Below are positions 10,914 through 25,813 of a stretch of DNA of 27,451 nt, piece by piece. The translations under genes were made by a program, and so were the position numbers. Each line of letters begins with the position of its first letter. Positions within the stretch are counted from its first letter, which is position 1. Source of the DNA: a virus; the IMG/VR virus record IMGVR_UViG_3300031746_000136, positions 1 through 27,451 of that record. The stretch is one strand, 5' to 3'. Below the pieces are notes generated by a model. That model saw nothing but the letters and a program-made list of their open reading frames with translations, was not told the origin of the DNA and made no database searches.

Positions 10914-11497
10914 AGCGGATTCTTTCCCTCGCGCTTGCGCTCCTCGTACTGGGCGCGGCCGCGAGCTACGCGCAGACGCTCACGCAGACAACCGCGAAGT
11001 GGAATGCGTTAATCCACACTGGGCGTCTGGTATCGAGTGGGACGTATGCCGTGACGACCGCGCAACTCCTCGATGCGGATAGCTCGATCCAGAGTGTCGT
11101 GATCGACTTGACGAACGGATCGGCCAGGCGACCGGGGAGCATAGTGTTTACTTTTACCTGGGCGGGCATGGTTGGTGGAAGTGCGCTTTCGGAGATCGAC
11201 ATAAAACCGTATGCCCATGCGTCTGCGACGGCGACGGCGGGGTCAAGTAGCGTGTTCTCAACCAACGGGAATGGTTTGTGTATCGGGCCAAACTATGGCA
11301 ACGCGGAGTTCCCAGTTACGCTCGTCATCGGCACGTCGGATGCGGGATCAGAGATCGGCAGGTTAATGACAACCACCGGGATCATCCGCGAGTTAAATAT
11401 GCCCCGATTCGTCTCGTTCACGATCGACAAGGAGGGCGCGACGGGCAGGTGGAGTGCCGGGACGTTCACGATCGGTTGGGAGTGTTACGCACCTTAG
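10910..11497 (+). CDS. Exported protein with Sec signal peptide, unknown function
   Basis: A 195-residue product beginning MKRILSLALALLVLGAAASYAQ: a textbook Sec signal peptide with a basic n-region, hydrophobic core and likely SPase I cleavage after S-Y-A. The mature part is Thr/Ser/Gly-rich and beta-like (SGTYAVTTAQLLDADSSIQS, then GSIVFTFTWAGMVGG), without Cys pairs or lipobox. GGAGG is nine bases upstream. A cleavable signal in a gene between capsid and connector genes is odd for a virion protein, which assembles in the cytoplasm. It could be a host-derived gene, an envelope-modifying or exclusion protein, or a structural protein keeping an ancestral leader. Confidence 0.7.
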   Translation: MKRILSLALALLVLGAAASYAQTLTQTTAKWNALIHTGRLVSSGTYAVTTAQLLDADSSIQSVVIDLTNGSARRPGSIVFTFTWAGMVGGSALSEIDIKPYAHASATATAGSSSVFSTNGNGLCIGPNYGNAEFPVTLVIGTSDAGSEIGRLMTTTGIIRELNMPRFVSFTIDKEGATGRWSAGTFTIGWECYAP

Positions 11498-11505
11498 AGG
11501 AACCG

Positions 11506-12882
11506 ATGTCGGTTACAGCCTATAAGAACCCGTCTGATAACGGCGACATCGGCGCGGAGTTTTCCAATCCGTCCAATGCCTACACGTCGAACAATGTTGA
11601 CGCAACGGCGGATACTACGGGCGGTGAATATGTGCAGCACGACTACACCGGGTTTGGGTTTACGACATCGGACGTTCCGGCGGGGAGTGTACTTGACGGG
11701 TTTGAGGTATCTGTAGAGGGGGGTACGGGACTTAGCCTCGACGAGCAGGTTGTCGATATTGCGATGGTAAAGGTGGGCTCCGGAGTCGGTTTTTTAGCCA
11801 ATACGCAGTCATTTACTAGGGTAGCCGACGCCACAAAAGTTATTGGCTCATCGACAGACAAGGCCGGGACCACATGGTTAGACACCGATGTTATCGCTGC
11901 AACCTTCGGGGTTATTGTACGAGTTTACAATAACGGCACCCTGACGGACCAGTTCCAGTTAGATCACGTTAAACTGCGGATATATTATCATGCACCCCCG
12001 GCTCAGACGGGGAGAGTTACCGCCGCGCAGGCCGACATCACGTATAGCCGGATGACGGGACGCGTGGTCGCCGCGCAAGCGGACGTAAGCTATTCCCCGA
12101 CGACCGGGCGTGTTAGCGCAATCCAAGGCGACATCGTCTACAACCCGAAAACGGGACGGATCACCGGGATTCAGGGCGATCTCACGTATGACCGCATGGG
12201 CGGGCGGATCACCGCTATGCAAGGGGACATCGTCTACACCGTCCCAACGGGACGTATCACCGCGGTAGACGCAACACCCGTCTACGGCGAGATGTGGTAC
12301 ATGATGGGGCCGGTCTACTGCACTATGTTCGGCCAGTACAAGAACGAATGGACGGACGCGGGTTTCGCCCGAATCGAAGAAGGAATCTATGCAAGCTCGC
12401 TGGGAGATGATCCCGCGAACGACGAGCAGGATTATTACCGTTTCCTCATGCCCGCGCTTCCTGCCGACGCGATCCCCAAGGGCATCATTGTAACCGTGGC
12501 CGGATCTTGTTCGCACGTCGGCTCCGTGATGACACTCGAAGCACAACTCCTCAAATACGTGGGTACGACTCCGACTCCCGTCGGCACTCCGATTCTCAAT
12601 ACGTGCGATTTTACGGATGATCGAGGTCTCGTCTACGGCGGGCAAGAACTTATGTGGGATGCCTCTCTCACGCGGGCGGACGTGAGCAATCCCCATTTCG
12701 GCGTATATTTTCGCACGAGGCGCGTAAGCGGTACGGACGGCTTCCGGGTCGATTGGGTCAGGATGGAAGTGGCTTACGTGCTACCCAGCCAGCTCGACGG
12801 GGTTTCCGTCGTCAAGGTCGAAAGCTCGGGCGGAGAAGTACGAAGCATCGTCATACCGGGAAAAGTGAGGAGCGTGAACTAG
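11506..12882 (+). CDS. Repeat-containing beta-rich virion-region protein
   Basis: Start ATG 11506 follows AGAGGA; the open frame upstream is a shadow of the previous gene. The 458-residue product has three parts. Residues 1-165 look like a jelly-roll sandwich: YVQHDYTGFGFTTSDVPAGS, LDGFEVSVEG, and DHVKLRIYYH at the end. Residues 168-263 are six tandem 16-residue repeats of the form TGRITAxQGDIxYxxx. Residues about 265-455 form a second sandwich ending in RVDWVRMEVAYVLP. Such sandwiches occur in phage and bacterial surface proteins and often bind surfaces. The DNA of the first third is less GC-rich than its neighbours, suggesting later acquisition. It could be a head fibre or decoration; function not known. 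Confidence 0.7.
   Translation: MSVTAYKNPSDNGDIGAEFSNPSNAYTSNNVDATADTTGGEYVQHDYTGFGFTTSDVPAGSVLDGFEVSVEGGTGLSLDEQVVDIAMVKVGSGVGFLANTQSFTRVADATKVIGSSTDKAGTTWLDTDVIAATFGVIVRVYNNGTLTDQFQLDHVKLRIYYHAPPAQTGRVTAAQADITYSRMTGRVVAAQADVSYSPTTGRVSAIQGDIVYNPKTGRITGIQGDLTYDRMGGRITAMQGDIVYTVPTGRITAVDATPVYGEMWYMMGPVYCTMFGQYKNEWTDAGFARIEEGIYASSLGDDPANDEQDYYRFLMPALPADAIPKGIIVTVAGSCSHVGSVMTLEAQLLKYVGTTPTPVGTPILNTCDFTDDRGLVYGGQELMWDASLTRADVSNPHFGVYFRTRRVSGTDGFRVDWVRMEVAYVLPSQLDGVSVVKVESSGGEVRSIVIPGKVRSVN
12007..12294 (+). repeat. Six tandem 48-bp coding repeats (16-residue GRITA repeat)
   Basis: Six in-frame units of 48 bp encode successive variants of TGRITAxQGDxxYxxM. The third to fifth units are the most alike in DNA (for example GGGCGGATCACCG and GGGACGGATCACCG). 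Protein identity exceeds DNA identity, so the repeats are kept as protein. Related units occur in the genes at 15658 and 22241. Confidence 0.85.
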
Positions 12883-12883
12883 G

Positions 12884-13228
12884 ATGCCGCTCGCAATCAG
12901 TATGCACTATGGGAAGGGAGACCGCGGGCCGGATTTCGTCGTGGAAGTCGCCGAAAGGGACGGCACGGTGAAAGACATCACCACGGCCACCTCTCCCCTG
13001 TACTACGTCTACGACCTGGTTAATAGCATCATGCTCGTGAACGGATCGGCGGACGGCGTTACAGTCGTTCCCCCCAACAAGATCAAGCGGGTGATTCAAC
13101 CTTCGGACACTGCAACCGAAATCGAGGACGCCGTCGCGTGGTTCACCTACCAGCTCGGCGGGAAGGTCGAATCGACCTACGCCGTGGGCTTCATCGTCTC
13201 CGAGCGTTGGAAAAGGGTGATGCTCTAA
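12884..13228 (+). CDS. Small Ig-like/BppU-like beta protein
   Basis: A 114-residue product starting at ATG 12884, one base after the previous stop, with GAGGAG upstream. The pattern GKGDRGPDFVVEVAERDGTV, then an ITTAT segment and a C-terminal TYAVGFIVSERWKRVML, resembles short N-terminal BppU/Ig-like baseplate domains. In those, a substrate-like strand pair is followed by DGT-x-V-x-(D/N)-(I/L). The genes at 16114 and 16444 have a similar overall plan. Position between the repeat protein and the connector suggests a virion accessory. The family call is tentative. Confidence 0.5.
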   Translation: MPLAISMHYGKGDRGPDFVVEVAERDGTVKDITTATSPLYYVYDLVNSIMLVNGSADGVTVVPPNKIKRVIQPSDTATEIEDAVAWFTYQLGGKVESTYAVGFIVSERWKRVML

Positions 13229-13229
13229 C

Positions 13230-13682
13230 ATGGCAACCTATACCGATACCAAAGTGTTTCTGATGAGCCTCCCCGAAAACTCGATCGAGCGGGGTTTCGT
13301 CCGGGAAGCCGCAGGGATCGCCTACGAGTACATCAATTCGGCTTTGAACGGAACCTATTCGGTGCCCTTCTCGCCAGTACCAGGGACGATTGAAAAGATA
13401 TCGAACCTTTTGACGAGAGCGATCGTGCTGGCACTCGTGGCCAAGGGCACCATCACTATCAAGGACATCAAGGAGCGGAGCGCAATCGATCCCGTCGAAT
13501 GGCTCGAAGATTTGCGGAAGGGAAAGCGGTCCATCGCGGGTGTGTCGCGAATCTCAGGCGGTTCATCGTGGCTCTCGACGGCCGACGAGATGCACATCTT
13601 CGACCTCGATCACGAAATCGCGCACGACGTTGACCCGGACCGACTCGACGAACTGGCCGATGAACGAAAGGCGTACCCGTGA
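13230..13682 (+). CDS. Head-tail connector, gp36/DUF1320-like
   Basis: A 150-residue, mostly helical protein. The key region YEYINSALNGTYSVPFSPVP followed by KISNLLTRAIVLALVAKG closely follows the pattern of Mu gp36-like DUF1320 proteins. These place INxxLxxRYxxP before PxxIxxxxxxLAxYxL near residues 35-75. An AAAAGGGTGA lies eight bases before ATG 13230. Such proteins form the adaptor ring under the portal. The acidic C-terminus (HDVDPDRLDELADERK) overlaps the next gene by four bases (GTGA). Consistent with the other Mu-like head proteins around it. Confidence 0.7.
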   Translation: MATYTDTKVFLMSLPENSIERGFVREAAGIAYEYINSALNGTYSVPFSPVPGTIEKISNLLTRAIVLALVAKGTITIKDIKERSAIDPVEWLEDLRKGKRSIAGVSRISGGSSWLSTADEMHIFDLDHEIAHDVDPDRLDELADERKAYP

Positions 13683-13873
13683 GCGAATATCATCCTGAGA
13701 TTCACGGTAAGATTATCTTGGGAGTGCAGTTCAAGGCGGAGTGCTCGGCGTGCGGCTGGAATCTTGTGATCGACAAGATCGCCGTCGGGGACACGCTCCC
13801 GCCGGATACTATCCCCTGCCCGCGGTGCTTGCTCATGCAGCAATGGGAAACGGTCAAAGTGGTGAGAGCGTAA
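13679..13873 (+). CDS. Small zinc-ribbon-like protein
   Basis: A 64-residue product starting at GTG 13679 (GTGA overlap) and stopping at TAA 13871-13873, overlapping the next ATG. Two CxxC pairs (CSACGW near residue 23 and CPRCLL near residue 47), about 24 residues apart, look like a zinc ribbon. The remainder is short strands (KIILGVQFKAE, ETVKVVR). Such small ribbons are common between phage connector genes but their role is unclear; a DNA, RNA or protein-binding function is inference. Confidence 0.65.
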   Translation: MSEYHPEIHGKIILGVQFKAECSACGWNLVIDKIAVGDTLPPDTIPCPRCLLMQQWETVKVVRA

Positions 13874-14547
13874 TGGATATCGACTACGGGATGCTTGGAG
13901 AATACAGCGCCGGAGGGGCTGGAGTTGCCGGTGAATACCGGACGTGGCCCGAGCTTGATATTGACCTCCGGGAGTTTCAACGTATCCCCGCGATCCTGAA
14001 ATACATCGAAGACCACGGCGGGGACGCGCGGAAGCCGCTGAAGCGGTTCAACGTCTACATGATGGGGCAGGTCGATAAGACCTTCAAGAACTCGGGGCGC
14101 GGGTTTGTGAAATGGGCGCCCCTTGCACCGCTAACCGTCATCATGCGCGCGTATCGCAAGCGCGGGAGCGGGCGCACGGGTCCGCGAAAGCCGCTCATGG
14201 ATACCGGCAATCTCAAGAACTCGACGGAGACGGAAGTGTTGCAGCTTGGTAAAAGTCTCGGGTCCAGGATTTTCAACGACGTGCCCTACGGCAAGACGCA
14301 CCAGTTCGGCGGCGAGATGAAGATCCCCGAGAAAACGATCAAGGCAAGAAAGGCCGCGGCGCTCCACTTCTTTACCAAGTGGGGCGAACAGGTATTTTGC
14401 AAAAGCGTCTTTCAACCGGCGCACACGGTAAAGGTTCCGGCAAGACCGTTTCTCTTTTTCCTTGAACAAGACAAGGACAAGGCGATAGAACTTTTTCTCA
14501 CGCACGCGCGCGAAGTGAGCGAACGAGGTTTGGAGCAGAGGGCGTAG
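13873..14547 (+). CDS. Virion morphogenesis / tail completion protein, Mu gpG-like
   Basis: The start is ATG 13873 at the TAATG overlap; the frame upstream overlaps the zinc-ribbon gene and is a shadow. The product is 224 residues. Diagnostic pieces of the gpG/phage virion morphogenesis family (PF05069-like) are in order: WAPLAPLTVIMR near residue 80; PRKPLMDTGNLKNSTETEV near 110; GSRIFNDVPYGKTHQFGGEM near 135; and the closing VPARPFLFF near 195. It acts at the head-tail joining interface. The N-terminal 40 residues (GEYSAGGAGVAGEYRTW) are Gly-rich and atypical. The gene is followed by a GC hairpin and a 125-base gap. Confidence 0.75.
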   Translation: MDIDYGMLGEYSAGGAGVAGEYRTWPELDIDLREFQRIPAILKYIEDHGGDARKPLKRFNVYMMGQVDKTFKNSGRGFVKWAPLAPLTVIMRAYRKRGSGRTGPRKPLMDTGNLKNSTETEVLQLGKSLGSRIFNDVPYGKTHQFGGEMKIPEKTIKARKAAALHFFTKWGEQVFCKSVFQPAHTVKVPARPFLFFLEQDKDKAIELFLTHAREVSERGLEQRA

Positions 14548-14559
14548 ACGCCGCTCAAG

Positions 14560-14591
14560 GGGCCGGGGAAGTAGGGGTACGACCCCGGCCC
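14560..14591 (+). terminator. GC-rich hairpin after the gpG-like gene
   Basis: GGCCGGGG (14561-14568) is perfectly complementary to CCCCGGCC (14583-14590), extended one pair outward by G14560/C14591. The loop is 14 bases and contains GGGGTACG, the reverse of the CGTACCCC element. It begins 12 bases after the stop codon. No T-run follows, so termination would be weak or factor-dependent. Confidence 0.45.
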
Positions 14592-14605
14592 TCCCAGAAC
14601 ACCCC

Positions 14606-14656
14606 AAGTACCCCAATCGTACCCCGCAAACCGTACCCCAAGGCCAATCGTACCCC
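14606..14656 (+). repeat. Cluster of TACCCC elements before the tail terminator candidate
   Basis: AAGTACCCC (14606-14614), AATCGTACCCC (14615-14625), ACCGTACCCC (14630-14639) and AATCGTACCCC (14646-14656) lie in a 125-base gap without a gene. An inverted GGGGTACG sits at 14574-14581. The last copy is followed by GGAA and ends 16 bases before the GTG start at 14673, matching the arrangement at 3038-3063. The remainder of the gap holds only the hairpin above. Confidence 0.6.
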
Positions 14657-14672
14657 GGAAAGTCCGTTTCAA

Positions 14673-15179
14673 GTGTCCGCATACGGGACCGCAACGACAC
14701 CGCAGGAACTCCTGATTGCGATGCGCGACAAAGCGCGTCAGGACACTGCTACGCTCGGGTATCTCCGGACGGTAGAGGTAGCCTTTCCTCCGCTTGATAA
14801 CGTGCCGCTGAACCAACCCGCGCTTTACATCGTGTGGACCGGCTCGCCCGAGGAGTACAAGGGCGGCGAGGGCGGAGTCAAAGTCAAGGTCGCAACACAC
14901 CAAGTCACGCTTTATTGCGCGGTCTACGTCCCGTCGCACGACGACACGGCGGCGATCCTCGGGGATGGTCATTCCCCTGGAATTCTCAAACTCACGGAAG
15001 ACGTAATCGACTTTTTCGCGGGGAACCTCTTGGGCCTCTCGGGGCTCGATGAGGCGAACGCGCCGGATATCGAGGCTCCGGCCAATGCCCACGCGATTGT
15101 CCAAACCCTCGATGACAAATGGATGCACGTCGTCGGTCTGGTCTACCAGGCGCGGACGAAGTATTTCGAGCGATCGTAA
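14673..15179 (+). CDS. Tail terminator-like protein (possibly Mu gp37/DUF1834-like)
   Basis: A 168-residue product starting at GTG 14673. There is no strong SD (only GGAAAG 14 bases away) and no alternative ATG or GTG upstream in frame. The N-terminal PQELLIAMRDKARQ is followed by VEVAFPPLDNVPLNQPALYI, where strands present a Pro-x-hydrophobic-x-x-x motif. A central HQVTLYCAVYVPSHDD segment is followed by a helix with KLTEDVIDFFAGNLLG. This is the alpha/beta plan of tail terminator or minor tail proteins, and the position, after gpG and before the tube, agrees. The regulatory-looking upstream gap is shared only with the small terminase. Moderate confidence. Confidence 0.6.
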   Translation: MSAYGTATTPQELLIAMRDKARQDTATLGYLRTVEVAFPPLDNVPLNQPALYIVWTGSPEEYKGGEGGVKVKVATHQVTLYCAVYVPSHDDTAAILGDGHSPGILKLTEDVIDFFAGNLLGLSGLDEANAPDIEAPANAHAIVQTLDDKWMHVVGLVYQARTKYFERS

Positions 15180-15207
15180 CGGATTCACTCAACGGAGGTG
15201 ACTGAGA

Positions 15208-15642
15208 ATGGCAACCACGACACTTTACCCGGATGGTGATGTCGGAACCGTCCAGTGGGATACCACGACGGGAACTCTTCACTACACGGAGATCGACGAG
15301 GGGACCGCTTCGCCCAACGATGCGGACTACATCGAGACGACAACCGCGGACGATACCGATGTCTTCTCGTTCGGCGCGACCCCGGCGAATACGGACGTGG
15401 TTACGCAGGTCGATGTCAAGGTCCGCGGCAAAGTAACGGACGCGGCCAACGTGGCCCACTTGCATGTCGAACTGTGGCACACGGGAGAAACCGTACAGAT
15501 CGGCGCGACGAAGGCGATCTCGACGACCGACTTCGGCGGGTCCGGGACGCTCGGAACCGTGACGCTCTCGTGGACGGGTCTAACGCTCACCAAGGCGCAG
15601 GCCGATTCGATGTCGGCGAAGGTCATCTTCAAGGTCGCGTAA
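15208..15642 (+). CDS. Beta-sandwich accessory virion protein
   Basis: ATG 15208 follows GGAGGTGACTGAGA. The 144-residue product begins MATTTLYPDGDVGTVQWDTT and contains a TDVFSFGATPANTDVVTQVD segment, then DVKVRGK and a final SWTGLTLTKAQADSMSAKV followed by IFKVA. This is the pattern of the jelly-roll-like domains that form both ends of the protein at 11506, but as a stand-alone gene. No enzymatic residues are apparent. It sits with three other small beta proteins between the terminator candidate and the tail tube. A surface-exposed decoration or adhesion role is inference. Confidence 0.65.
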   Translation: MATTTLYPDGDVGTVQWDTTTGTLHYTEIDEGTASPNDADYIETTTADDTDVFSFGATPANTDVVTQVDVKVRGKVTDAANVAHLHVELWHTGETVQIGATKAISTTDFGGSGTLGTVTLSWTGLTLTKAQADSMSAKVIFKVA

Positions 15643-15657
15643 AGGAGGGCTGAAATC

Positions 15658-16095
15658 ATGGCTGGCGAAACATCACGGATCACAGCCGTTCAAGCGGACC
15701 TCGACTACGACGCGATGAAGGGGAAGATCACCGCGGCCGAAGCGGAACTCACCTACGACGCGAAAACGGGGCGTATTGTAGCCGCCCAAGCGGACCTCAC
15801 GCACGGTCTTATGACGGGGCGCGTGACAGCGGTCGGAGCCGTCGCGACGCACACGGTCACGGGGACCGATCTTGCAGACGACGGCGTGCGGATCATGGCG
15901 ATTCAGGCGGACGTTACGCGAACCATTCGCCACGTCATGCACTACGCGACGACGGGCTGCGAGACGACGCTCTCATATCCTAGTCCGGCTCCGACCGAGC
16001 TTCGGTACGCATCTCCGATCGATGAGACTACGTTCGAAGGGGTTATCTCTCCGCCGCGCGGCGGGACAGACCCTGGCGAAATGGAAGAGGTATAA
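15658..16095 (+). CDS. GRITA-repeat protein
   Basis: ATG 15658 is preceded by AAAGGAGGGCTGAAATC. The 145-residue product consists largely of the 16-residue repeat. Units begin TSRITAVQADLDY, KGKITAAEAELTY, TGRIVAAQADLTH and TGRVTAVGAVATH, then after a short break comes GVRIMAIQADVTR. The C-terminal 55 residues change character: HVMHYATTGCETTLSYPSPA, then an acidic Pro/Gly-rich tail ending DPGEMEEV. The gene lies directly after a stand-alone sandwich protein, so the pair reproduces in two genes the sandwich-plus-repeat order found fused at 11506. Fold and function unknown; an extended beta structure is likely. Confidence 0.7.
   Translation: MAGETSRITAVQADLDYDAMKGKITAAEAELTYDAKTGRIVAAQADLTHGLMTGRVTAVGAVATHTVTGTDLADDGVRIMAIQADVTRTIRHVMHYATTGCETTLSYPSPAPTELRYASPIDETTFEGVISPPRGGTDPGEMEEV
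15670..15927 (+). repeat. Tandem 48-bp coding repeats (16-residue GRITA repeat)
   Basis: Four contiguous 48-bp units (15670-15861), then an 18-bp break and a fifth diverged unit (15880-15927). Each encodes a (T/K)G(R/K)ITAxQADLxYxx-like block. Relatives occur at 12007-12294 and as a single unit near 23579-23626. Confidence 0.75.
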
Positions 16096-16113
16096 AAAGG
16101 AGGTGTATAGGAA

Positions 16114-16425
16114 ATGGCAGACAGTAGCCAGATCATCACGCTGCAAAGCTGGGGACAGAAGCTAATCATCGAGACGGGAGCGACTCTCGTCGGGCAAACC
16201 GCGCTCGATCTCGTCTTCCAGGATCCGGCCGGTGGAACGAACACGGTATCCGCGACAACCGACAGCGAGGTTGGCGGAGAGGTCCATATCGATATCGCCG
16301 AAGACTTCTGGTCGGACAACGGCACGGCCGGGACGTGGAAGGTCATCGCAAAAGTCACGCGCGCGACCGGGATTCTCTACTCGCGGCCCGTGACGCTTTA
16401 CGTGCGCGACATGTGGGCCGACTGA
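16114..16425 (+). CDS. Small BppU/Ig-like accessory protein, copy 1
   Basis: ATG 16114 is preceded by AAAAGGAGGTGTATAGGAA. The 103-residue product has a QIITLQSWGQKLIIETGATL opening, then a TALDLVFQDPAGGTNTV strand pair, an EDFWSDNGTAGTWKVIAKVT segment and RPVTLYVRDMW. This series, an entry strand with T-G-A-x-(I/L), a (K/Q)-x-P-x-G/D turn, then GTW-x-(V/A) and a final strand, is the layout of BppU-like N-terminal Ig domains on receptor-binding proteins. The next gene follows the same plan, indicating duplication. No fibre part is attached, so it may be a free tail or head decoration. Confidence 0.6.
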   Translation: MADSSQIITLQSWGQKLIIETGATLVGQTALDLVFQDPAGGTNTVSATTDSEVGGEVHIDIAEDFWSDNGTAGTWKVIAKVTRATGILYSRPVTLYVRDMWAD

Positions 16426-16443
16426 GAGGGAGGTGGTTTACCG

Positions 16444-16731
16444 ATGGAAGTCACCAAACAGGGATACGGACAAACGATCACGCTCGAAACCGGGATCGAT
16501 ATCACGGGCGCGACGCAGATCAAGATGCTTTTCAAGCCCCCGAACGATGACGAAGTCGTCGTCACGGGAACGTGCGCCGATACGACGGTAGGCGATGTCT
16601 ACTGGACGAGCACGGCAGGGTTTTGGACGGTGGCCGGGGTGTGGAGGGCGCTCGCGCGTATCCGATTCGATACGGACGAGCTTATCTACACGCGGCCGGT
16701 AGCCTTTACGGTCGTCGATCAGTTTGCATAA
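16444..16731 (+). CDS. Small BppU/Ig-like accessory protein, copy 2
   Basis: ATG 16444 follows GGGAGGTGGTTTACCG. The 95-residue product has the same blocks as the preceding gene: KQGYGQTITLETGIDITGAT, then IKMLFKPPNDDEVVVTG, a turn with TSTAGFWTVAGVWRALARI and a closing RPVAFTVVDQFA. The shared positions include GQ-x-(I/L), ETG, the P-P/P-A turn, and RPV. The duplication adjacent to the tail tube gene suggests a virion location. Functional role not determined. Confidence 0.6.
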   Translation: MEVTKQGYGQTITLETGIDITGATQIKMLFKPPNDDEVVVTGTCADTTVGDVYWTSTAGFWTVAGVWRALARIRFDTDELIYTRPVAFTVVDQFA

Positions 16732-16752
16732 CAGACAGGAGGATGAAACAAA

Positions 16753-17271
16753 ATGGCAGGAACCACAGCCAACATCTGCATAGGCGGGGCCATTCTCAAA
16801 GTGGCAAACAACGCAAGCCCCGGCGTCCCAACCGACGTGGGATTCATCAAGGACGGCATCGTCATCACGCCGAACTTCGAGATGTTCCGCGTCGACGGGG
16901 CCGAGGGTTTCCCCGCGGTGCTCGCCATGCGGCGCACGAAAACGGAGTACACGGTGAAATCGACTCTCATGGAGCCGACGCTCACGAACATCCAAAAGGC
17001 GTGGGACACGTACCTCGCGGGAGTCAGTGACCCGACGAGTCCGCTCAATCTCACGGCGTCGTCGAACGTCAAGGAACGCAAGATCGAGATCACGGCCAAC
17101 AAGAACCTGGCGGGCGGAACGCGGACGATTACCTTCTGGCGCACGATCGTCGAGTCGCCGGGAGAGTACAAGGTCACGGACTACGAGGCTTCGCTTCTCC
17201 CCGTGACGTTCGTCTGCATGTACGACAGCGCGGCCAGTCCGGCCGGTATCGGAACGATTGCCGACACGTAA
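16753..17271 (+). CDS. Major tail (tube) protein
   Basis: ATG 16753 is preceded by CAGGAGGATG. The 172-residue product has an N-terminal segment NICIGGAILKVANNASPGVP, then DVGFIKDGIVITPNFEMFRV. The V-G-x-x-x-x-G-x-x-I-x-x-x form at this point is characteristic of siphovirus tube subunits. It continues with MRRTKTEYTVKSTLMEPTL and a C-terminal YEASLLPVTFVCMY strand. Length and position (before the assembly chaperones and tape measure) agree. It polymerises into the hollow tail tube. No sheath gene occurs nearby, so the tail is non-contractile. Confidence 0.8.
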   Translation: MAGTTANICIGGAILKVANNASPGVPTDVGFIKDGIVITPNFEMFRVDGAEGFPAVLAMRRTKTEYTVKSTLMEPTLTNIQKAWDTYLAGVSDPTSPLNLTASSNVKERKIEITANKNLAGGTRTITFWRTIVESPGEYKVTDYEASLLPVTFVCMYDSAASPAGIGTIADT

Positions 17272-17298
17272 ACCCGTCGAGGGATCGAAGGGGAGATA

Positions 17299-17751
17299 GT
17301 GCCGTTTGTCAACAGCGATGTTCTCAGTCCGACGGATTTCGCGAAGGGACGCGCGAAGGTCTTCGAGGTACGCGAGCGCGACGGAACTGTCGCGGTCGAA
17401 GATATCGTCGAGATCGCGATGTATATGGCGACGGGCTACTCGTGGCCGAATCTCTCGTACCGAAACGGGAAGAGCCAGCTTCGCGAGAAGATGCCCGGTA
17501 CGCGCCCCGGAGCCATTGAAATCTACCGGAGACAACGAACGACCGGTGAGTACGAATGGACCGTGCTTTTCGTGTTTCACGGGGATGTAGAGACGCTGCG
17601 CCGACGCAGGATGCTTTTTAACAACGCGGAACTCTACATCCCCCCACAGGATTTATACGATTTGCAGATGGAAGTTTTTGCGATCCGAGCCGAGCAGATC
17701 GAGAAAGCAAAAGCGAGCGCGGCTCGCGTCGAAGGGGGAATCGTTACATGA
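17299..17751 (+). CDS. Tail-region protein, unknown function
   Basis: A 150-residue product from GTG 17299, preceded by AAGGGGAGATA. It has an N-terminal FAKGRAKVFEVRERDGTVAV segment, then VEDIVEIAMYMATGYSWPNL and RPGAIEIYRRQRTTGEYEWT with a following strand LFVFHGD, and ends in a charged helix MEVFAIRAEQIEKAKASAAR. No family is recognised. Its place between tail tube and chaperone, and its four-base ATGA overlap with the chaperone, tie it to tail assembly. It could be a tail-tube accessory or an additional chaperone. Confidence 0.65.
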   Translation: MPFVNSDVLSPTDFAKGRAKVFEVRERDGTVAVEDIVEIAMYMATGYSWPNLSYRNGKSQLREKMPGTRPGAIEIYRRQRTTGEYEWTVLFVFHGDVETLRRRRMLFNNAELYIPPQDLYDLQMEVFAIRAEQIEKAKASAARVEGGIVT

Positions 17752-18260
17752 GCTGGAAGGACGCAATCAAGGATCTGATCGGGAAACGGGACGACGTAGA
17801 CGCCCTCGTGAACGACGGGGTCGAGATCGTCGTCGGGGGCGCCGGGGTATCCACCAAGAAAACCGTGCTTCTCAGGGAGCCGTCGATGGCGCGATTCGCG
17901 AAACACGTCAAGGTCTTGGCCTCGGGCGTTCGCGTCGCGTTTAACGAGATCCAGGGCGAGGAACTTCTGAAGTCTATCGTTCCCGACTTGAAGGCGGGGA
18001 AAACGCCCACGATGCCCGATGCCGGGGCGCTCTTGCGTGCAAAGCCGGTCGTCGACGCCTTGACCGACCTCATTGCCGACCTCGTCGGCGAAGACCGTTC
18101 CTACGTCGAAAACGAGATGACCCCAAAACAGGTCGGGAGGGTACTCGCGACCTACGCCCGGCTCATCGGGTGGGAGACGATTGAGCGTTTTTTCGTCCAA
18201 GCCCTGACACGGGGCACGGAGTACGTGGAGAAAATGGCGACGGAGGCGAAGGCGCAGTAA
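17748..18260 (+). CDS. Tail assembly chaperone (gpG-like)
   Basis: A 170-residue, mostly helical protein starting at ATG 17748 in an ATGA overlap. Its position between tube and tape measure and the overlapping downstream frame identify it as the short tail assembly chaperone. Segments include VEIVVGGAGVSTKKTVLLRE, SMARFAKHVKVLASG, and the helical PKQVGRVLATYARLIGWETI. A programmed -1 shift at residues 148-149 (T_TTT_TTC) would extend it into the T frame. The unshifted C-terminus is FVQALTRGTEYVEKMATEAK. It would bind the tape measure during tail assembly and is absent from the final virion in known systems. Confidence 0.75.
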   Translation: MSWKDAIKDLIGKRDDVDALVNDGVEIVVGGAGVSTKKTVLLREPSMARFAKHVKVLASGVRVAFNEIQGEELLKSIVPDLKAGKTPTMPDAGALLRAKPVVDALTDLIADLVGEDRSYVENEMTPKQVGRVLATYARLIGWETIERFFVQALTRGTEYVEKMATEAKAQ

Positions 18261-18604
18261 CGCCGGGGGCCGCGTTCAACGCGGCACTCGTGGAGGTGGG
18301 CCGTGCGTTCTCCCAAACCCCCGCCCGAGTCTACGAGACGATGGGCCTCAACGAATTTCAAGAGGCCTATCGGTGCATCATGCACGCGCAAGGGCTTGAG
18401 TTCCGCGCGTCTATCCTCGCCAGTTTCTACGGCTCGCGCGCCGACGCGGACAAACTCCCGGCGATTCTTGATCGCATCTCGATCGGCTCCGAACCGCTGG
18501 CGTCCCCGAGCGTCGCAGATATCCCGCTTCCATACGTACCAACCGCAACCCTTGTTGACCAAGGGTTCGAGAAAGTCGAGATAGACGATGGGGCTGGGCA
18601 GTAG
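17748..18604 (+). CDS. Tail assembly chaperone GT fusion by -1 frameshift
   Basis: The -1 frame is open from 18185 (after TGA 18182-18184) to TAG 18602-18604, overlapping G by about 76 bases. A shift at 18188-18194 gives a fusion of 149 G residues plus 136 T residues (285). After the shift comes a Gly-rich linker, then TPGAAFNAALVEVGRAFSQT and YETMGLNEFQEAYRCIMHAQ, a good protein-like stretch. The independent start GTG 18290 would drop the sensible AFNAALVE segment and so is less likely. The overlap of T with the tape measure start is 17 bases. Matches lambda G/GT organisation. Confidence 0.75.
18188..18194 (+). other. -1 ribosomal frameshift slippery heptamer T_TTT_TTC
   Basis: In the G frame the codons are CGT TTT TTC, so the heptamer T TTT TTC fits the X_XXY_YYZ rule exactly; both tRNAs re-pair after slipping back one base. 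It lies just after the last T-frame stop (18182) and 66 bases before the G stop, the only window where the shift can occur. Confidence 0.8.
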
Positions 18605-21293
18605 AAGCGTCGAAATCTTCCTGATTGCGAACGCCGACAAGTGGGTCAAGGGGCTTGACCGGGCCACGTCGTCAGCCGAAGAGTTCGGGCGGGCGCTCAA
18701 GAATCAAAAGAAGCTCGCGGACATGACATTCAAGGCGGGGGCGGCCCTCGTCGTTTCCGCCGCCGGGATGATCGCCGCAACCGTTGGACCCGCGACAAAG
18801 CTCGAAGACGCCGTGAACCGCGTCGCATCGCTCACCGGTAAAACGGGCGCGGAATTCACGGCCCTTACGGCGGGGCTCATTGCCGACGCGAAGAGGCTCT
18901 CGGTTAGAATGGGCGCGTCGCTCGATAACGTCACGGCGGCTTACGAGTCGGCCGTGGTGAACGGGATCGACCCCACGACGGACGCCTTCAAGCGGTTCGT
19001 GACCCAAGCCCTGCAAGTGTCCCGCGTCACCGGGCAGGATGTTGCGGCCAATATCGCGCTTGCCGACGAGGTGTTGGATCGCTTCGGAAAGAAACTCGCG
19101 GATTCACCCGACGCACTAGCCGAACTCTACAAGATGTCGGGGGCCGCGGAGGGCGGTTTTGCGCCGTTCCTCCAAACCATCGGACAAGCCGGGGCGATTG
19201 CCGGACAGCTCGACGTTCCGCTCAAGGAAGTCGCGGCGACGGTCGCGCTCATGTCTCAACAGGGGATCAGCGGGAGTCGGGCGGGGCTCGCGCTCGGCAA
19301 TATGCTGATGCGCCTCTCGGGCGCGAGCGACAACGCTTCCGATAGTCTACACAAACTCGGCATTGAAATCATTGACCCCGCGACGGGGAAGGTAAAAAAC
19401 CTCGCCGACGTGTTCGAGCAGTTACGCGCCGTGCTGGCCTCCATGTCCGAACAAGAGGCGAATAAACTCTTGACGGAACTCGCGGGCGGGCAAGGCGTCA
19501 AGGCGCTTGGCGGCTTACTCCGAAACGTGACGGGCGATTACCGCGCCATGTTCGCCGCGATGGAGGACGGAAAGTCCCTTCAGGACGCATTCAACGAGCG
19601 CACCGAAACGACCAAATTCCAAATCGACCAGGCGCGGGCGTCTATCGAGGCGGCTCGGGCGGATATCGGGGCGGCATATCTACCGATGCTCGCGGATGTC
19701 GCTACGAAAATCGCGGGCGCCACGAACGCCATGCGGCCGTTTATCACCGCGCACGCGGACGCGATTCTCCCGGTAACCGGCCTCGCCGTCGCGGTCGGGC
19801 TCCTCGCAATGGGGATCGGGAAATCAGCGCTTCTCATTAACGCGATGAAGCTCGCGTTCCCCGCGCTTGTCGGCATGTTCGGCCCGGTCGCTCTCGTTAT
19901 CGCGGGAGTGACCGCCGCGCTCATCGCCACCGCTGCCGCGTCGAAATCATTCGAGAGCAAAATCGCAGGGATGGAAACCGCACTCTCCGGGAGTGAGGCG
20001 AAAGCCGCTCTCCTACGGGAACGGATCGCAGAACTCGAAAAAGAAGAAAAGACGTACTTCGAGACGACCGGGAAGGGAAACCCCGTGCTGGCGTCTCTAC
20101 GAGGCGAATTCGACGAACTGACGAAGACGATCGAGAAACAAAAGGGGAAGCTCGTCGAGCTTGGCGCCGCGTGGACTCAGAACACCGTCTTCGCAATCGA
20201 CGCCGCGCTCGGAACGATCCGCGCGAAGCGGGAAGAACTCGAAGCGGAAATGACTGTCGGCGGATGGGAAGGCGGCGAGGGCGCCCCGATCTTCGCGCCG
20301 CAAATCAAGGAACTCGAAAAGCTCGCGCTCCAAACCGAACGCCTCATGGATCGGCGCAAGGAACTCGTCGCCGCGGGGGATGTTCTTGCGGCGAGCACAG
20401 CGGACACGACTGCGGAGACGGTTACCGGAACCGGCGCGATGAAGGCCGCAACCGAAGCCACAACCGACTTCGGGAAAGCGATCGCGGCGCTCGTTGCCGA
20501 GCAGAAAAAAGCACGGTTAGAAGCAAGTTGGATCGCGCCGCCAGTATCCGCCGAGGCCGTAACTCCGATGGGGCCACCCGCGCCGATTGTGCCTGACTTC
20601 GGTGCGGATGCGATCGAACAGATGGATCTTGTCGGAGTGAAGGCGACCGAGACCGGCGCTCTCGTTCAGGCCGCGTTCTATGACGCTTTCAATCAGACGG
20701 ACTCGCTCCAGATGTTCGCGGACGATTTCGTCTCTATCTTCGACCAGCTCGTCAACTCCGGGGAGAACGTCGGGAAGTCGTTCGCGAAGGCCCTCGGGAT
20801 GGCGCTTATCCAAACCGTCAAGATGGCTATTCGCACCGCGATGATGGAGATCCTGGCTTTCAAGATCAAGGAACTTGCGAAAGCCGCGATGGGTGCGCCG
20901 CTCTCATTCGGCGCGACGCTCGCCGCGATTGGCCCGATCATGGCCGCCGCCGCCGCGGGAACGGCCGCTCTGTCGGCAATCGAAGGGAAGATGGTCAAGG
21001 GTTTTTATAGCGGGGGGATCATTGACAAGACCGGGATGATCCTCGCGCACGCGGGCGAGCGCGTGATAAACCCCGCGGTCAACACGACCAAAGACGTGAT
21101 CGACATGCTCTCGGGCACTCGACTGGCGGCGGCCGTAAGTCCGGCTGTCTCTTCCCCCGTCGGAGCTGGTGGAATGGCCGCCGCGCCGATCTATTTCCAC
21201 ATGCCCATCTACGGGCCGGTGTCGTCGGAACTCGACTTGGAGAAAATCATGCGTAGGGCGGCGGACGTGTTCCGTGCCTCGCACGGCGGGTGA
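18588..21293 (+). CDS. Tape measure protein (TP901-type)
   Basis: A 901-residue protein, the usual TMP position after G/GT. It starts at ATG 18588 inside the T frame. Residues 40-75 contain a hydrophobic helix (LVVSAAGMIAATVG). Residues about 80-270 match the TP901 tail tape measure core: GAEFTALTAGLIADAKRLSV, MGASLDNVTAAYESAVVNGI, APFLQTIGQAGAIAGQLDVP, and LLTELAGGQGVKALGGLLRN. Hydrophobic segments are at about 393-445 and 770-800, with coiled coil at about 450-540 (AALLRERIAELEKEEKTYFE). A C-terminal GGIIDKTGMILAHAGERVIN is typical. By the rule of about 0.15 nm per residue the tail would be near 135 nm (inference). Confidence 0.9.
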   Translation: MGLGSRSVEIFLIANADKWVKGLDRATSSAEEFGRALKNQKKLADMTFKAGAALVVSAAGMIAATVGPATKLEDAVNRVASLTGKTGAEFTALTAGLIADAKRLSVRMGASLDNVTAAYESAVVNGIDPTTDAFKRFVTQALQVSRVTGQDVAANIALADEVLDRFGKKLADSPDALAELYKMSGAAEGGFAPFLQTIGQAGAIAGQLDVPLKEVAATVALMSQQGISGSRAGLALGNMLMRLSGASDNASDSLHKLGIEIIDPATGKVKNLADVFEQLRAVLASMSEQEANKLLTELAGGQGVKALGGLLRNVTGDYRAMFAAMEDGKSLQDAFNERTETTKFQIDQARASIEAARADIGAAYLPMLADVATKIAGATNAMRPFITAHADAILPVTGLAVAVGLLAMGIGKSALLINAMKLAFPALVGMFGPVALVIAGVTAALIATAAASKSFESKIAGMETALSGSEAKAALLRERIAELEKEEKTYFETTGKGNPVLASLRGEFDELTKTIEKQKGKLVELGAAWTQNTVFAIDAALGTIRAKREELEAEMTVGGWEGGEGAPIFAPQIKELEKLALQTERLMDRRKELVAAGDVLAASTADTTAETVTGTGAMKAATEATTDFGKAIAALVAEQKKARLEASWIAPPVSAEAVTPMGPPAPIVPDFGADAIEQMDLVGVKATETGALVQAAFYDAFNQTDSLQMFADDFVSIFDQLVNSGENVGKSFAKALGMALIQTVKMAIRTAMMEILAFKIKELAKAAMGAPLSFGATLAAIGPIMAAAAAGTAALSAIEGKMVKGFYSGGIIDKTGMILAHAGERVINPAVNTTKDVIDMLSGTRLAAAVSPAVSSPVGAGGMAAAPIYFHMPIYGPVSSELDLEKIMRRAADVFRASHGG

Positions 21294-21296
21294 TCG

Positions 21297-22235
21297 ATGC
21301 AGAATCTTGAATCTTCTCTCTACCGCATAGAACTCTGCTGCCCAGGTATGGGCGTCGGCCCGGAGCAGCCTGTTATCGGCGCGACCTCGGGCGAACGGCT
21401 CTCGCTTTCGCAATACGGCTTCCGCATCGTAAATCCATACGATGTCATGGGGAGCGTCTCGACGTTTCCGCTCCCGTTCCGCGCTGGGTCCGGCGTTATC
21501 ACGAGCGGGTATCTCGCATCGCACGACGTGCAACTTGTCGGGACTATCTTTGACAATACCTCTTACGCGCTGTGGAACTCCGTCGCGCGCGACTATCTCT
21601 TGCGGTGGCTCTCGATCGCCGCTGTGCGGCGGGACACGTACTTGCGGATCGGGCTTTGGACCGGGTCGGTATTCAACTACTACCGCCTCTATTGCGTGCT
21701 CAGAGAGTCAAACATCCCATTTGTACCGTACACGACGATGACGGTCGCGTCACCTGTCACGCTCAACTTCTTCGCCTACGACCCGATCATGTACGAGGAT
21801 ACCGAGGGATTGGTTGCCGTTTCCGTCGTCAATTCTACGGGTGGTTTCGGGCGAGGATCGGGAGGCGCAACGCTCCCGGGGGCGAGTCGCCCGATCTTCC
21901 GCTCGACGTACTCGTGGACCTGCCCCGATGCGAATCCTATCGCGAGGTCAATTATCACGGAAACGTATACGGGGATTGTCACGACGATCGATACGTCCAT
22001 TACAGGCATCGGGCAACAAGTCGTCGTGGACAACTGGAACGGACTCGTCTACGGCGGGTCAACGACCTTGTTTACGAATCGGATCGATAAACTCTCTGGG
22101 TCGTTCTGGTGGAGCGGAAAATCATCGGCCTGGTTCTACATCCTGACTGACAACATCCCGACGAGCTATACGTTTTACTGCCGATACTTGAAACCCGCGG
22201 CGAACTACTTCTTGCCACAAACATATAGCGGGTAA
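21297..22235 (+). CDS. Distal tail (Dit-like) protein
   Basis: A 312-residue beta-rich protein directly after the tape measure. The first 100 residues contain RIVNPYDVMGSVSTFPLPFR, then GSGVITSGYLASHDVQLVGT, followed by a SVARDYLLRWLSIAAVRRDT helix. The second part includes TVASPVTLNFFAYDPIMYED, the strand that in Dit proteins precedes the galectin-like domain (form V-x-L-x-F-x-A-x-D-P). The final region (SSAWFYILTDNIPTSYTFYC) is jelly-roll-like. Dit forms the ring joining tube tip and hub. The start at ATG 21297 follows GGCGGGTGATCG. The call uses position and the D-P strand motif. Confidence 0.7.
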   Translation: MQNLESSLYRIELCCPGMGVGPEQPVIGATSGERLSLSQYGFRIVNPYDVMGSVSTFPLPFRAGSGVITSGYLASHDVQLVGTIFDNTSYALWNSVARDYLLRWLSIAAVRRDTYLRIGLWTGSVFNYYRLYCVLRESNIPFVPYTTMTVASPVTLNFFAYDPIMYEDTEGLVAVSVVNSTGGFGRGSGGATLPGASRPIFRSTYSWTCPDANPIARSIITETYTGIVTTIDTSITGIGQQVVVDNWNGLVYGGSTTLFTNRIDKLSGSFWWSGKSSAWFYILTDNIPTSYTFYCRYLKPAANYFLPQTYSG

Positions 22236-22240
22236 CTCGC

Positions 22241-25200
22241 GTGGCACTCTACTACATCAAACAAACAGGCAACGACAGCGCTGCCGGAACCTCGTGGGCA
22301 ACCGCGTGGCAGACGCTCGACCATCTCGTTACAGCCGACCCGCTCGACAACGGCGACACGGTTATCATCCGGCCCGGCGTCGCGTCGGCCCCGTACTATC
22401 CGCTCGTTTCAATCCGATGGTGGAATAGCCATATTACCTTCATCAGCGAGGACCGGGCCGTCGCTCTCGGAATCATTGCCGAGGACGGCGGGCACCTGCA
22501 CGGGAAACCAATCATCGACGGGACGAACATTGCCAGCTCGACGCTCGACATATTCCGCCCCGATATACACGGGATTGTTAAACCCGGCGGGCCGTGGGAT
22601 TGCCACGGGGTTATACTCGACGGCCTAACGCTCAAGAACGCCAAAGGCTCTGCGTTCTGGGCGGCGATGGATATTACCTACGACCGGGCGACCAATCGGG
22701 ACCACGCCATCCGAAATTGCCTCATCGACACTTCGTTCTCGTCCGGGATATTTGTCAGCCGTGCGGACTACTTCACACTCGAACAATCCGAGCTTAAGAA
22801 TTGCGGGACAGACCCGACAAGGTACAATCTGAATCACCCGATGTATATTTGTCGGTCTGACTTCCCGACCATCCAAGACAACATCGTCCATGATTCCCCC
22901 GGTCGTTACGGCGTATACGTAAACGGGAGCATGACGGACAACGTGCAGGAATTCATCGTCGAGCCGACGATACGCCGAAACACGTGCTACAACTGCATGG
23001 GGAACGGCATCGGTGTTTACAACGCGGTCGGTGGGCGGGTAGAAAACAATCTCATTTACGACACGCTCTTTATGTTCCAGTCGAGCGACGGCGGAATCCG
23101 TATCGGTATACAGGATGACGTACCGAATGCCGTCCCGAGTAACGGCGTAGTCGTCACATGCAACACGATTATCGAATCCCTGCCCAATACGAGAGGCGTC
23201 ATTCTCATCCACAAGCCCGAGGGTGGCCCGAACGATATCGGCTCGGCCAACTGTTACGTATTCGATAACACGATTCTCACGGCCACTGGAACTCCCGCGC
23301 AAGCCGTTGAATACAATACGGCGGGGAATCACACGGTCGAGTCGAACTTCATCGCGCCGTACACGACGCCCAATCTGACGAACTGGTTTACCAACTATGC
23401 CGCGAAAGACTTCCACCCGAAAGCCGCCGCGCCGTGGATAGATACCGGTGAGGAGTCGGCCTACAACAGCGCGTGGGGAAGAAAGCTCGCGCCGACGACT
23501 GACTTCGACGGAGCCGCGCGCCCCCAAGGACGACACACCGAGCCGGGGTGTTTCGAGTATCCGTCTGGGGCGCTCGATTACGTAGCGCGAATTACGGCAG
23601 TTCAAGCAACCCTCACGCACAGCGAGACGCCGACGATGCCGGTTCTCGTTGCTCCACTTCAGACGTTCGTTATTCCTGACTGGCGGATCGATGTCTCCTC
23701 ATGGGGCGGCACGTTCAAGGATACGATCCAAAAAGCATCGGGCTACAATGCGATGGTCAAACTTGAGTTTGAACTCCTCCGCGACGGCGGATGCGGAGAC
23801 GCCACGATTGAACTCATGCGCGAGCGCGTTCCCGGCCCCCCGAGAGCGGCTCAATTCGGCTACAAGATCGCGCCCGGCGACGTGATAGACATCTATCTTC
23901 ACTCGTGGTACTTCGGCGACATAACAACGAAGTGGTATCAGGGCGTCGTGACCAAGATGGACGACCCCGAGGGCTTCGGAGAAACAATCACGATCAAGGC
24001 CGAGGGACTCTGGAAGTTCCTATCAAAGCGGCTCGTCACGAAATACTACGAGGGGAAGGCGATTAACTTGATGGTCGCCGACATCCTCGCGGACGTATAT
24101 GCCGAGAGTCGGTTATCGAGTGGAGCGTCAGGGATAAGCATCACATATCCCTACACGATCTCGGACGTTGAGTTTGAACTAACATCGTTCTCCGATGCCA
24201 TTGCGGCGCTCGCGGCCGTACAGCTCAATGTCCAATATGGCATAGATCAAAACGGGCTGCTCTACTTCAGGGATATTTCGACGACGACGATGCTCACGAA
24301 GCAAGTCGGCATCAACGTGTCGAGTTACGAGAAATACGCCGAGGCCGACGATCTCACGAATCACTACCTTTTGCAAGCCAAGCAACTCGTTGGTGGCGCG
24401 AACCTCATTCTGTCGAAAGAATCGGCGGCATCCATTACCTCATACGGGCGCCGGACAAAGGTGCTCCCGGTGACGGGCCTCCAAAACTTGAGTGACCTCG
24501 CACGTTACGGCACCTCGCTACTCGACGAAACCGACGAGCCCAACACGCACGTCGAACTAGATGTCGTCGGCGACGTTTATTACCTATTCCCGCGGGGGAA
24601 CTGCAAGATTGTGAAGCTAGACCGCACGGTAATGGACCTCCCGATCCGGTCCGTAAAGTACACGTTCGCGGGGAATGCGACGATGAAGCTGGGCCTCGGG
24701 GATGCGCCCGAGAACTCGCTCTCCGAAGAGATCCGAAGGATGACCCGCCAGGTGACCGTTGGGAAACAATCGTCGATGTCGAACACGAAGATCGAACACA
24801 CGAAGAACGAGGAATGGGCGCAATCGGTACGGATCGATGCGGGGAAACAGGGGAACCTCACGCTCTATTACGATGTCTTCGATAGCGCGCGCGGGCTAGA
24901 CCCTGCCTCGCGAGGGTATCTACACGACACAACAATCGGCTGCATGCGGAACCGTCTACCGCCGGGGACGATGCCATACACCGATATGTATTCCATACCG
25001 ATTGACATCGGGGCGGTTGTGGGAACCGTCCGGGCGCATCTCTGGATCGATCAACTCGGGATCGTCGAGTTCAAGAGTTCGGACGTGCTCCGCGAATACT
25101 TCTCGGACGCGAATAACTCGTGGACATGCGAAACCGTGGGGCTTGTCTCGTCAAGCCGTACCGACAAGATTCTTTGGGAGTACGAAGCCCAGCAGCCTGG

Positions 25201-25813
25201 GCCTGCGTATACGATACACGCATGGGTCACGAGTGGCGCAATAGATGACGCTGGGCACTATCAGGACATCATCTTCAATTATGCGGACGATAACAACTAC
25301 GGGGGGTTGCGTTTCGTACACGCTGCAGCGAACGTGTGGAAGGCGAAACTTTTCAAGTACGTGAGCGCCGCATACTCAGATGTCGCGTGGGCGGAAATGA
25401 CGGTCGCGCCGGTAAAGGTCGAAGTAGACGTTAGGAATAGTCCGACCGATACCACGGCGCGAGTTTACGACACATACGGGAACGTGATCGCGACCGTCGT
25501 GCTCGCGGTTCCGGGATATACCGCCGGATCAAGCACGCTTCGGACTTGGGGATTTGTCGGATGGGATAACCCGGCGGGGATGTATGTGACAAAGGCCGGA
25601 TGGGTCGAACTCGGGGGCGCGTTCAACGTCTACGTCAAGCGCAACACGGGCACCGGATGGGTGACGGCCGTCTCGGGGCTTGTCACGGACGGAGAAGTCA
25701 ATGTGGACGTTGACGTGAGTTCGCAAGCGACTGGAACGACCATCCAAATGCGTTGCTACATGCGCGGCAATATGGCGCTCAAAGGTTGGGGTTGGTCGGC
25801 AAAGACAACGTAG
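22241..25813 (+). CDS. Tail hub protein with N-terminal beta-helix and C-terminal lectin-like region
   Basis: An 1190-residue product from GTG 22241, six bases after the Dit stop, with only a weak SD. Residues 1-443 form a right-handed parallel beta-helix: opening ALYYIKQTGNDSAAGTSWAT, a GDTVIIRPG strand, rungs such as NCLIDTSFSSGIFVS, RVENNLIYD and NCYVFDNTIL, and a closing DFHPKAAAPWIDTGEE with DFDGAARPQG. A single GRITA-type unit lies at about 447-462. Residues about 466-880 match a tail-associated hub: YKIAPGDVIDIYLHSWYFGD, WYQGVVTKMDDPEGFGETIT, and GLWKFLSKRL. From about 945 to 1130 a LamG-like sandwich follows (AYTIHAWVTSG, WGFVGWDN). The protein may combine glycan recognition or degradation with baseplate function. 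Confidence 0.75.
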   Translation: MALYYIKQTGNDSAAGTSWATAWQTLDHLVTADPLDNGDTVIIRPGVASAPYYPLVSIRWWNSHITFISEDRAVALGIIAEDGGHLHGKPIIDGTNIASSTLDIFRPDIHGIVKPGGPWDCHGVILDGLTLKNAKGSAFWAAMDITYDRATNRDHAIRNCLIDTSFSSGIFVSRADYFTLEQSELKNCGTDPTRYNLNHPMYICRSDFPTIQDNIVHDSPGRYGVYVNGSMTDNVQEFIVEPTIRRNTCYNCMGNGIGVYNAVGGRVENNLIYDTLFMFQSSDGGIRIGIQDDVPNAVPSNGVVVTCNTIIESLPNTRGVILIHKPEGGPNDIGSANCYVFDNTILTATGTPAQAVEYNTAGNHTVESNFIAPYTTPNLTNWFTNYAAKDFHPKAAAPWIDTGEESAYNSAWGRKLAPTTDFDGAARPQGRHTEPGCFEYPSGALDYVARITAVQATLTHSETPTMPVLVAPLQTFVIPDWRIDVSSWGGTFKDTIQKASGYNAMVKLEFELLRDGGCGDATIELMRERVPGPPRAAQFGYKIAPGDVIDIYLHSWYFGDITTKWYQGVVTKMDDPEGFGETITIKAEGLWKFLSKRLVTKYYEGKAINLMVADILADVYAESRLSSGASGISITYPYTISDVEFELTSFSDAIAALAAVQLNVQYGIDQNGLLYFRDISTTTMLTKQVGINVSSYEKYAEADDLTNHYLLQAKQLVGGANLILSKESAASITSYGRRTKVLPVTGLQNLSDLARYGTSLLDETDEPNTHVELDVVGDVYYLFPRGNCKIVKLDRTVMDLPIRSVKYTFAGNATMKLGLGDAPENSLSEEIRRMTRQVTVGKQSSMSNTKIEHTKNEEWAQSVRIDAGKQGNLTLYYDVFDSARGLDPASRGYLHDTTIGCMRNRLPPGTMPYTDMYSIPIDIGAVVGTVRAHLWIDQLGIVEFKSSDVLREYFSDANNSWTCETVGLVSSSRTDKILWEYEAQQPGPAYTIHAWVTSGAIDDAGHYQDIIFNYADDNNYGGLRFVHAAANVWKAKLFKYVSAAYSDVAWAEMTVAPVKVEVDVRNSPTDTTARVYDTYGNVIATVVLAVPGYTAGSSTLRTWGFVGWDNPAGMYVTKAGWVELGGAFNVYVKRNTGTGWVTAVSGLVTDGEVNVDVDVSSQATGTTIQMRCYMRGNMALKGWGWSAKTT

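What the first reader, a model, noticed from the sequence alone, without database searches (positions are those of the whole stretch)
11506..23626. A 16-residue GRITAxQADxxY repeat shared by three different virion-region proteins
Six tandem copies lie at 12007-12294 in the protein at 11506, four to five at 15670-15927 in the protein at 15658, and one near 23579-23626 (VARITAVQATLTH) at the joint between beta-helix and hub in the 1190-residue protein. The units have the same length and key positions (G, R/K, I/V, A, Q, A/G, D, Y/H), while the surrounding domains differ. That suggests a mobile protein module, possibly beta-hairpin or beta-solenoid, used as a spacer or docking motif between virion parts. 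I know no named family for it. Shared use by head-region, tail-accessory and hub proteins could mean they assemble on one another.
Basis: partly seen in the sequence, partly recalled or inferred. Interest (0 to 1): 0.8.

Follow-up and report, generated by a model that had tools for sequence, protein, structure and literature searches.

The report
Shared beta-repeat joint in phage virion proteins
An uncultured bacterial virus uses one 16-residue protein repeat in three different particle proteins (head, neck and tail hub), and a related virus shows that whole domains have been swapped or added exactly at these repeats, so the repeat looks like a reusable, extendable connector of virus parts.

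Summary
A 16-residue unit (consensus T[GA]R[IV]TA[VA][DQ]xDLTY plus a 3-residue turn) occurs 6x in head-region protein A, 4x plus one degenerate copy in neck-region protein B, and once in tail-hub protein C; models trained on A or B alone find all other units (0 of 1000 shuffles). No named family covers it. Six further proteins on four IMG/VR contigs carry it. The closest relative, G001, is syntenic and again has units in three proteins, but is rearranged exactly at the arrays: its A homologue has an unrelated N-terminal domain before a conserved array and C-domain, while the window's A-type N-domain plus five units is fused to the front of its hub. In two other related phages the same tail protein has 21 versus 2 units. 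Third codon positions are diverged, so the protein sequence is what is kept. I read it as a selected, length-variable beta-strand connector at which accessory virion domains are exchanged. The fold is not settled: AlphaFold2 gives a beta-solenoid for one regular array, a known artefact risk, and nothing for protein A's array. Docking of the three proteins on one another through the units is untested.

The parts
11506..12882 (+). Protein A (458 aa), head-region gene between a signal-peptide-like 195-aa protein and the head-tail adaptor genes
   Evidence: ORF; neighbours' PHROG hits; syntenic homologue in G001
11506..12006 (+). N-terminal beta-sandwich-like domain J1 of protein A; homologous to the N-terminal domain of the G001 hub and to a separate G001 protein, unrelated to the N-domain of the G001 A homologue
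   Evidence: alignment z 37.8, 35.8 and -1.5 respectively; low-to-middling confidence model
12007..12294 (+). Array of six 16-residue units in protein A
12295..12882 (+). C-terminal beta-sandwich-like domain J2 of protein A, conserved in the G001 A homologue and distantly related to J1
   Evidence: z 78.8 to G001; J1-J2 z 7.0
15658..16095 (+). Protein B (145 aa), neck/tail-region gene between the tail-completion genes and the tail-tube candidate
15670..15861 (+). Array of four units at the N-terminus of protein B
15883..15930 (+). Degenerate fifth unit of protein B (GVRIMAIQADVTRTIR), also present in the G001 homologue (GARVHAVHAVATRPIH)
22241..25813 (+). Protein C (1190 aa), tail hub with N-terminal right-handed beta-helix
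   Evidence: PF13229 1.8e-7; G001 homologue matches phrog_1887 tail protein 7.7e-7; 44% identity to the G001 hub over 1235 alignment columns
23582..23629 (+). Single unit at the joint between beta-helix and hub in protein C, kept at the same place in G001 (YGRVTAVNAVATYTEL)

Best explanation
The 16-residue unit is a selected, all-beta connector module of virion proteins. Shown: units recur in three proteins of the same phage and of its relative; arrays vary in copy number; domains in front of the array are replaced or added with the breakpoint at the array; the amino-acid pattern is conserved while DNA is diverged. Inferred: tandem units form a short beta-structured stalk whose length is set by copy number and which carries accessory beta-sandwich (possibly glycan-binding) domains away from the virion-anchored part. 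Because all arrays present the same kind of surface to the next domain, one accessory domain can be exchanged for another, or moved from a head protein to a tail protein, without breaking the fold: the array is a standard joint. Where the array is N-terminal with nothing in front (protein B), it would be the exposed end itself.
For: Units in A, B and C above every shuffle. The second phage, G001, has units in the same three proteins. Architecture change at the arrays: A and its G001 homologue share array + C-domain (49% over 282 aa) but their N-domains are unrelated (z -1.5); A's N-domain plus array is 41% identical over 254 aa to the N-terminus of the G001 hub, a part that the window's hub lacks; the rest of the two genomes is syntenic. 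Copy number 21 vs 2 in homologous tail proteins L016/L017. An unrelated hub-like protein (L006) has about 11 units between its N-terminal domains and the rest. Third codon positions agree far less than first and second: L016 0.76/0.80/0.40, A 0.64/0.61/0.44 identity, and identical residues use different codons in 36-58% of comparisons, so selection acts on the protein. Column pattern of 56 units: hydrophobic at 4, 6, 7, 9, 11, 13 and polar at 3, 5, 8, 10, 12.
Against: In protein B, L016 and L017 the array lies at the N-terminus, so it does not connect two domains there. Protein C has one unit only, too short for a stalk. The array of A is not modelled by AlphaFold2 (pLDDT about 30). Only one close relative was found, so the direction and number of domain moves are unknown, and G001 is a metagenome assembly whose reads I could not check. 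The longest identical DNA word between arrays of different window genes is 10 nt, so recent homologous recombination through the repeats is not shown.
Confidence: 0.55

Rival explanations
1. Docking module: units of proteins A, B and C pair with one another by beta-strand addition, so head, neck and hub proteins (or copies of one protein) assemble through them.
For: Same unit in three virion proteins in two phages; N-terminal exposed arrays in B and L016; single conserved unit at the beta-helix/hub joint of C and the G001 hub.
Against: From their gene order A, B and C are expected at distant places in the particle; the L006, L016 and L017 records show the unit in one protein only, though they may be fragments. 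No direct test was possible.
Confidence: 0.15
2. The array itself is the functional surface, for example a weak multivalent binder of host or environmental glycans, with copy number setting avidity.
For: N-terminal exposed arrays in B and L016; the neighbours of A's array resemble carbohydrate-binding-module folds, at middling scores only (CBM15 Z 8.0, CBM6 Z 7.8); copy number varies from 2 to 21.
Against: No sequence or fold match to a binding repeat; the conserved positions form a hydrophobic/polar strand pattern expected for structure rather than for a binding site.
Confidence: 0.15
3. Neutral repeat expansion: tandem duplication at loose linkers, without function in the particle.
For: Copy number differs between relatives; some units of one array are near-duplicates (up to 85% DNA identity).
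Against: Strong codon-position bias (0.76/0.80/0.40) and columns conserved across unrelated protein contexts; retention of the single unit in C and the G001 hub.
Confidence: 0.1

Closest known systems
Ig-like domains on tailed phages (Fraser et al. 2006, as cited in PMC10385173 on T4 Hoc)
   Same: An accessory beta module reused in different virion proteins, and strung in series to present something away from the particle.
   Different: Ig-like domains are independent folds of about 90 residues (own knowledge); here the unit has 16 residues and no Ig model was hit by A, B or the arrays.
Domain mosaicism of phage proteins (Smug et al. 2023, PMC10684548)
   Same: Fragments shared between otherwise unrelated phage proteins, marked in receptor-binding and other tail proteins.
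   Different: Here the shared fragment is a short tandem repeat at the swap boundary, and the sharing is within one genome across head, neck and hub.
'Tail tubular protein A' of MW202473.1 (L004): J1-like domain plus 22-residue repeats
   Same: Related N-terminal domain (26-28% identity; E 7e-4, 7e-13) followed by a long tandem beta-like repeat and then another part of the protein.
   Different: Repeat period is 22 residues with a different consensus; the array profile A5 does not hit this record.
Beta-solenoid proteins (EtpA, HxuA, tapirin, pectate lyases)
   Same: The AlphaFold2 model of ten L016 units aligns to them (EtpA Z 12.5, rmsd 2.5, 164 residues).
   Different: Foldseek E-values are above 1, and AlphaFold2 is known to over-predict solenoids for repeats (PMC11795689).

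Membership tests
PF08875 DUF1833 | Whole-protein score at or above Pfam's curated cut-off (21 bits) over most of the 150-position domain | tested here: not met
   G001 hub full length 14.0 bits, B 11.8 bits. An isolated four-unit fragment reaches 23.4 bits, but as two partial stretches, the best covering 24 of 150 positions, and four other arrays do not match
PHROG families (phrog_11793, phrog_3163, phrog_13349, phrog_11261) | Significant full-profile match shared by most arrays | tested here: inconclusive
   phrog_11793 is matched by 4 of 8 arrays at best E 0.0039 over about 17 residues; L016 alone matches phrog_11261 at 3.5e-5 and phrog_13349 at 3.9e-5. These profiles may contain related units; their members could not be read
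Beta-solenoid | Coil with one repeat per turn, in a confident model that independent methods agree on | tested here: inconclusive
   Ten L016 units: pLDDT 76.6, pTM 0.69, solenoid matches. Array of A: pLDDT about 30. AF2 bias documented in PMC11795689
Triple beta-spiral fibre shaft | Trimeric shaft built of about 15-residue repeats | not testable with these tools
   Needs multimer prediction or an experimental structure
Right-handed beta-helix (N-terminal part of protein C) | Pfam PF13229 above its curated cut-off | tested here: met
   31.3 bits against 25.9
Ig-like accessory domains | Match to an Ig-like family model | tested here: not met
   No Ig family among the Pfam, NCBIfam or PHROG matches of A, B or the arrays

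The most novel reading that the evidence does not exclude
The units of the head, neck and hub proteins are a common beta-strand adhesive: they pair across proteins, so that one repeat code wires separate parts of the particle (or several particles) together, and domain exchange between genes is guided by it.
Probability: 0.12. Interest if true: 0.75.

Novelty: new variant of a known kind. Interest (0 to 1): 0.5.

Why it matters
Shared accessory modules are known in phages, but usually as whole domains. Here a 16-residue repeat that no named family describes, and that I did not find in 50,697 phage records, marks the exact boundary at which accessory domains differ between a head protein and a tail hub of related phages. 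If confirmed it gives a concrete, testable account of how phage structural proteins gain and swap domains without losing function, and a compact length-tunable connector.

Tried and rejected
Origin of the unit from the terminal strand of the neighbouring beta-sandwich: the strands look alike by eye (..VDWVRMEVAY..), but a PSSM of 56 units gives no score above 3 there; rejected. Recent DNA duplication between genes: longest shared word 10 nt, mean inter-array DNA identity 52-55%; rejected. Cellular distribution: the two-unit pattern scan of 84,980 species genomes gave 18 stretches, none of which looked like the unit on translation; a profile search of 993 distinct genomes gave one hit, antisense to another gene and judged chance. 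Sequenced phages: tblastn with A, B, the L016 array, the L006 array and an artificial consensus found no convincing array; weak hits in Xanthomonas phage XbC2 and a Vibrio phage lie in unrelated contexts. The low-complexity filter may have hidden some, so this is not proof of absence. Searches of IMG/VR with A, B, the capsid protein and two hub alignments found no close relative beyond G001. PDB sequence searches with A, the hub profile and the array profile gave nothing useful. Literature searches for such a repeat gave nothing specific.

Full report
Setting. The window is a 27,451-base uncultivated virus record. Gene order is that of a tailed phage with a tape measure: DnaB-like helicase, terminase, portal with head-morphogenesis domain, protease, two paralogous head proteins, major head protein, head-tail adaptor, neck genes, tail genes, tape measure, a gene at the Dit position and the hub (the Dit and hub names rest partly on gene order). 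Protein A (11506-12882) lies between the major head protein and the head-tail adaptor; protein B (15658-16095) lies between the tail-completion genes and the tail-tube candidate; protein C (22241-25813) is the hub.

Observation. The 16-residue unit is real. Cross-trained models find every unit of the other proteins above all of 1000 shuffles, and the 12 places stand clear of everything else in six frames. The unit in C is single but scores 24.5 and 24.6 with models that never saw it.

Relatives. Single-sequence searches failed, so I scanned IMG/VR for degenerate DNA patterns of one and then two consecutive units. These found G001 (L005/L014/L018), G002 (L006), G003 (L016) and G004 (L017) and no false hit. 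A four-unit profile hits three proteins in G000 and in G001, and one in each of the others. L016 carries 21 units at the N-terminus of a tail protein (phrog_1082, 6.8e-83); its homologue in L017 has 2 units, while the sequence before and after is conserved. L006 has about 11 units between repeated N-terminal domains (period 130 residues) and the rest of a long protein.

Domain exchange at the array. G001 is syntenic with the window gene by gene, at about 32-82% identity. The exceptions lie at the arrays. (i) The A homologue keeps the array and the C-domain, but its N-domain is unrelated (z -1.5, against 78.8 for the C-domains). (ii) The hub of G001 starts with a relative of A's N-domain and five units (41% over 254 aa), joined to the beta-helix at which the window's hub begins (44% over 1235 columns). 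(iii) A further G001 gene just before the hub consists of the same kind of N-domain and a cysteine-containing tail. The conserved single unit sits at the same joint in both hubs. I cannot tell which state is ancestral.

Selection. Within arrays, first and second codon positions agree much more than third positions (A 0.64/0.61/0.44, L016 0.76/0.80/0.40). Arrays of different window genes share no DNA word above 10 nt. The likeness is therefore old and kept at the protein level.

Fold. The columns of 56 units alternate hydrophobic and polar, with a phase change between positions 6 and 7 and a turn at 14-2; this suggests two short strands per unit (inference). AlphaFold2 with ten L016 units and eight other array segments gives pLDDT 76.6 and pTM 0.69. 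Its structural matches are mostly parallel beta-solenoids (EtpA Z 12.5, rmsd 2.5) and left-handed beta-helix enzymes (higher Z but rmsd near 11), with Foldseek E-values above 1. AlphaFold2 is known to make confident but unrealistic solenoids from repeats (PMC11795689). In the unit the charged residues fall on the polar phase, which argues against one of that paper's warning signs (charges stacked inside), but protein A's own array has pLDDT about 30. I hold the solenoid at roughly even odds. The flanking domains of A look like beta-sandwiches resembling carbohydrate-binding modules and other jelly-rolls at middling scores (Z 7.5-10.2), on a low-confidence model.

Known families. Pfam, PHROGs, NCBIfam and PDB sequences hold no family that describes the unit. 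DUF1833 crosses its cut-off for one isolated fragment only, through two partial matches, and is rejected. Weak PHROG matches suggest that some described but uncharacterised families may contain related units.

Mechanism. The most likely reading is a standard, extendable beta connector at which accessory domains are exchanged. What is shown is the sharing, the copy-number change, the position of the breakpoints and the selection. The stalk geometry, any glycan binding and any docking between proteins are inferences.

Noticed in passing
window 10910-11497: A 195-aa head-region protein starts with a signal-peptide-like stretch (MKRILSLALALLVLGAAASYAQ); G001 has two homologues side by side, both with a hydrophobic start. 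Unusual for a virion-region gene.
   Followed up: partly
window 15931-16095: The C-terminal tail of protein B and of its G001 homologue seems to carry a second short repeat, about 10 residues (THASPINATL in G001, autocorrelation lag 10; weaker in B), then a conserved SPPRGG end.
   Followed up: partly
window 8774-9172 and 9190-9609: Two tandem paralogous head proteins (58% identical; phrog_673); G001 has three copies.
   Followed up: partly
window 16114-16425 and 16444-16731: Two adjacent small paralogues (30% identical) without PHROG match, also paired in G001.
   Followed up: no
L004 10248-12509: 'Tail tubular protein A' of MW202473.1 has a J1-like N-domain followed by a long 22-residue tandem repeat: an analogous layout with a different repeat.
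   Followed up: partly
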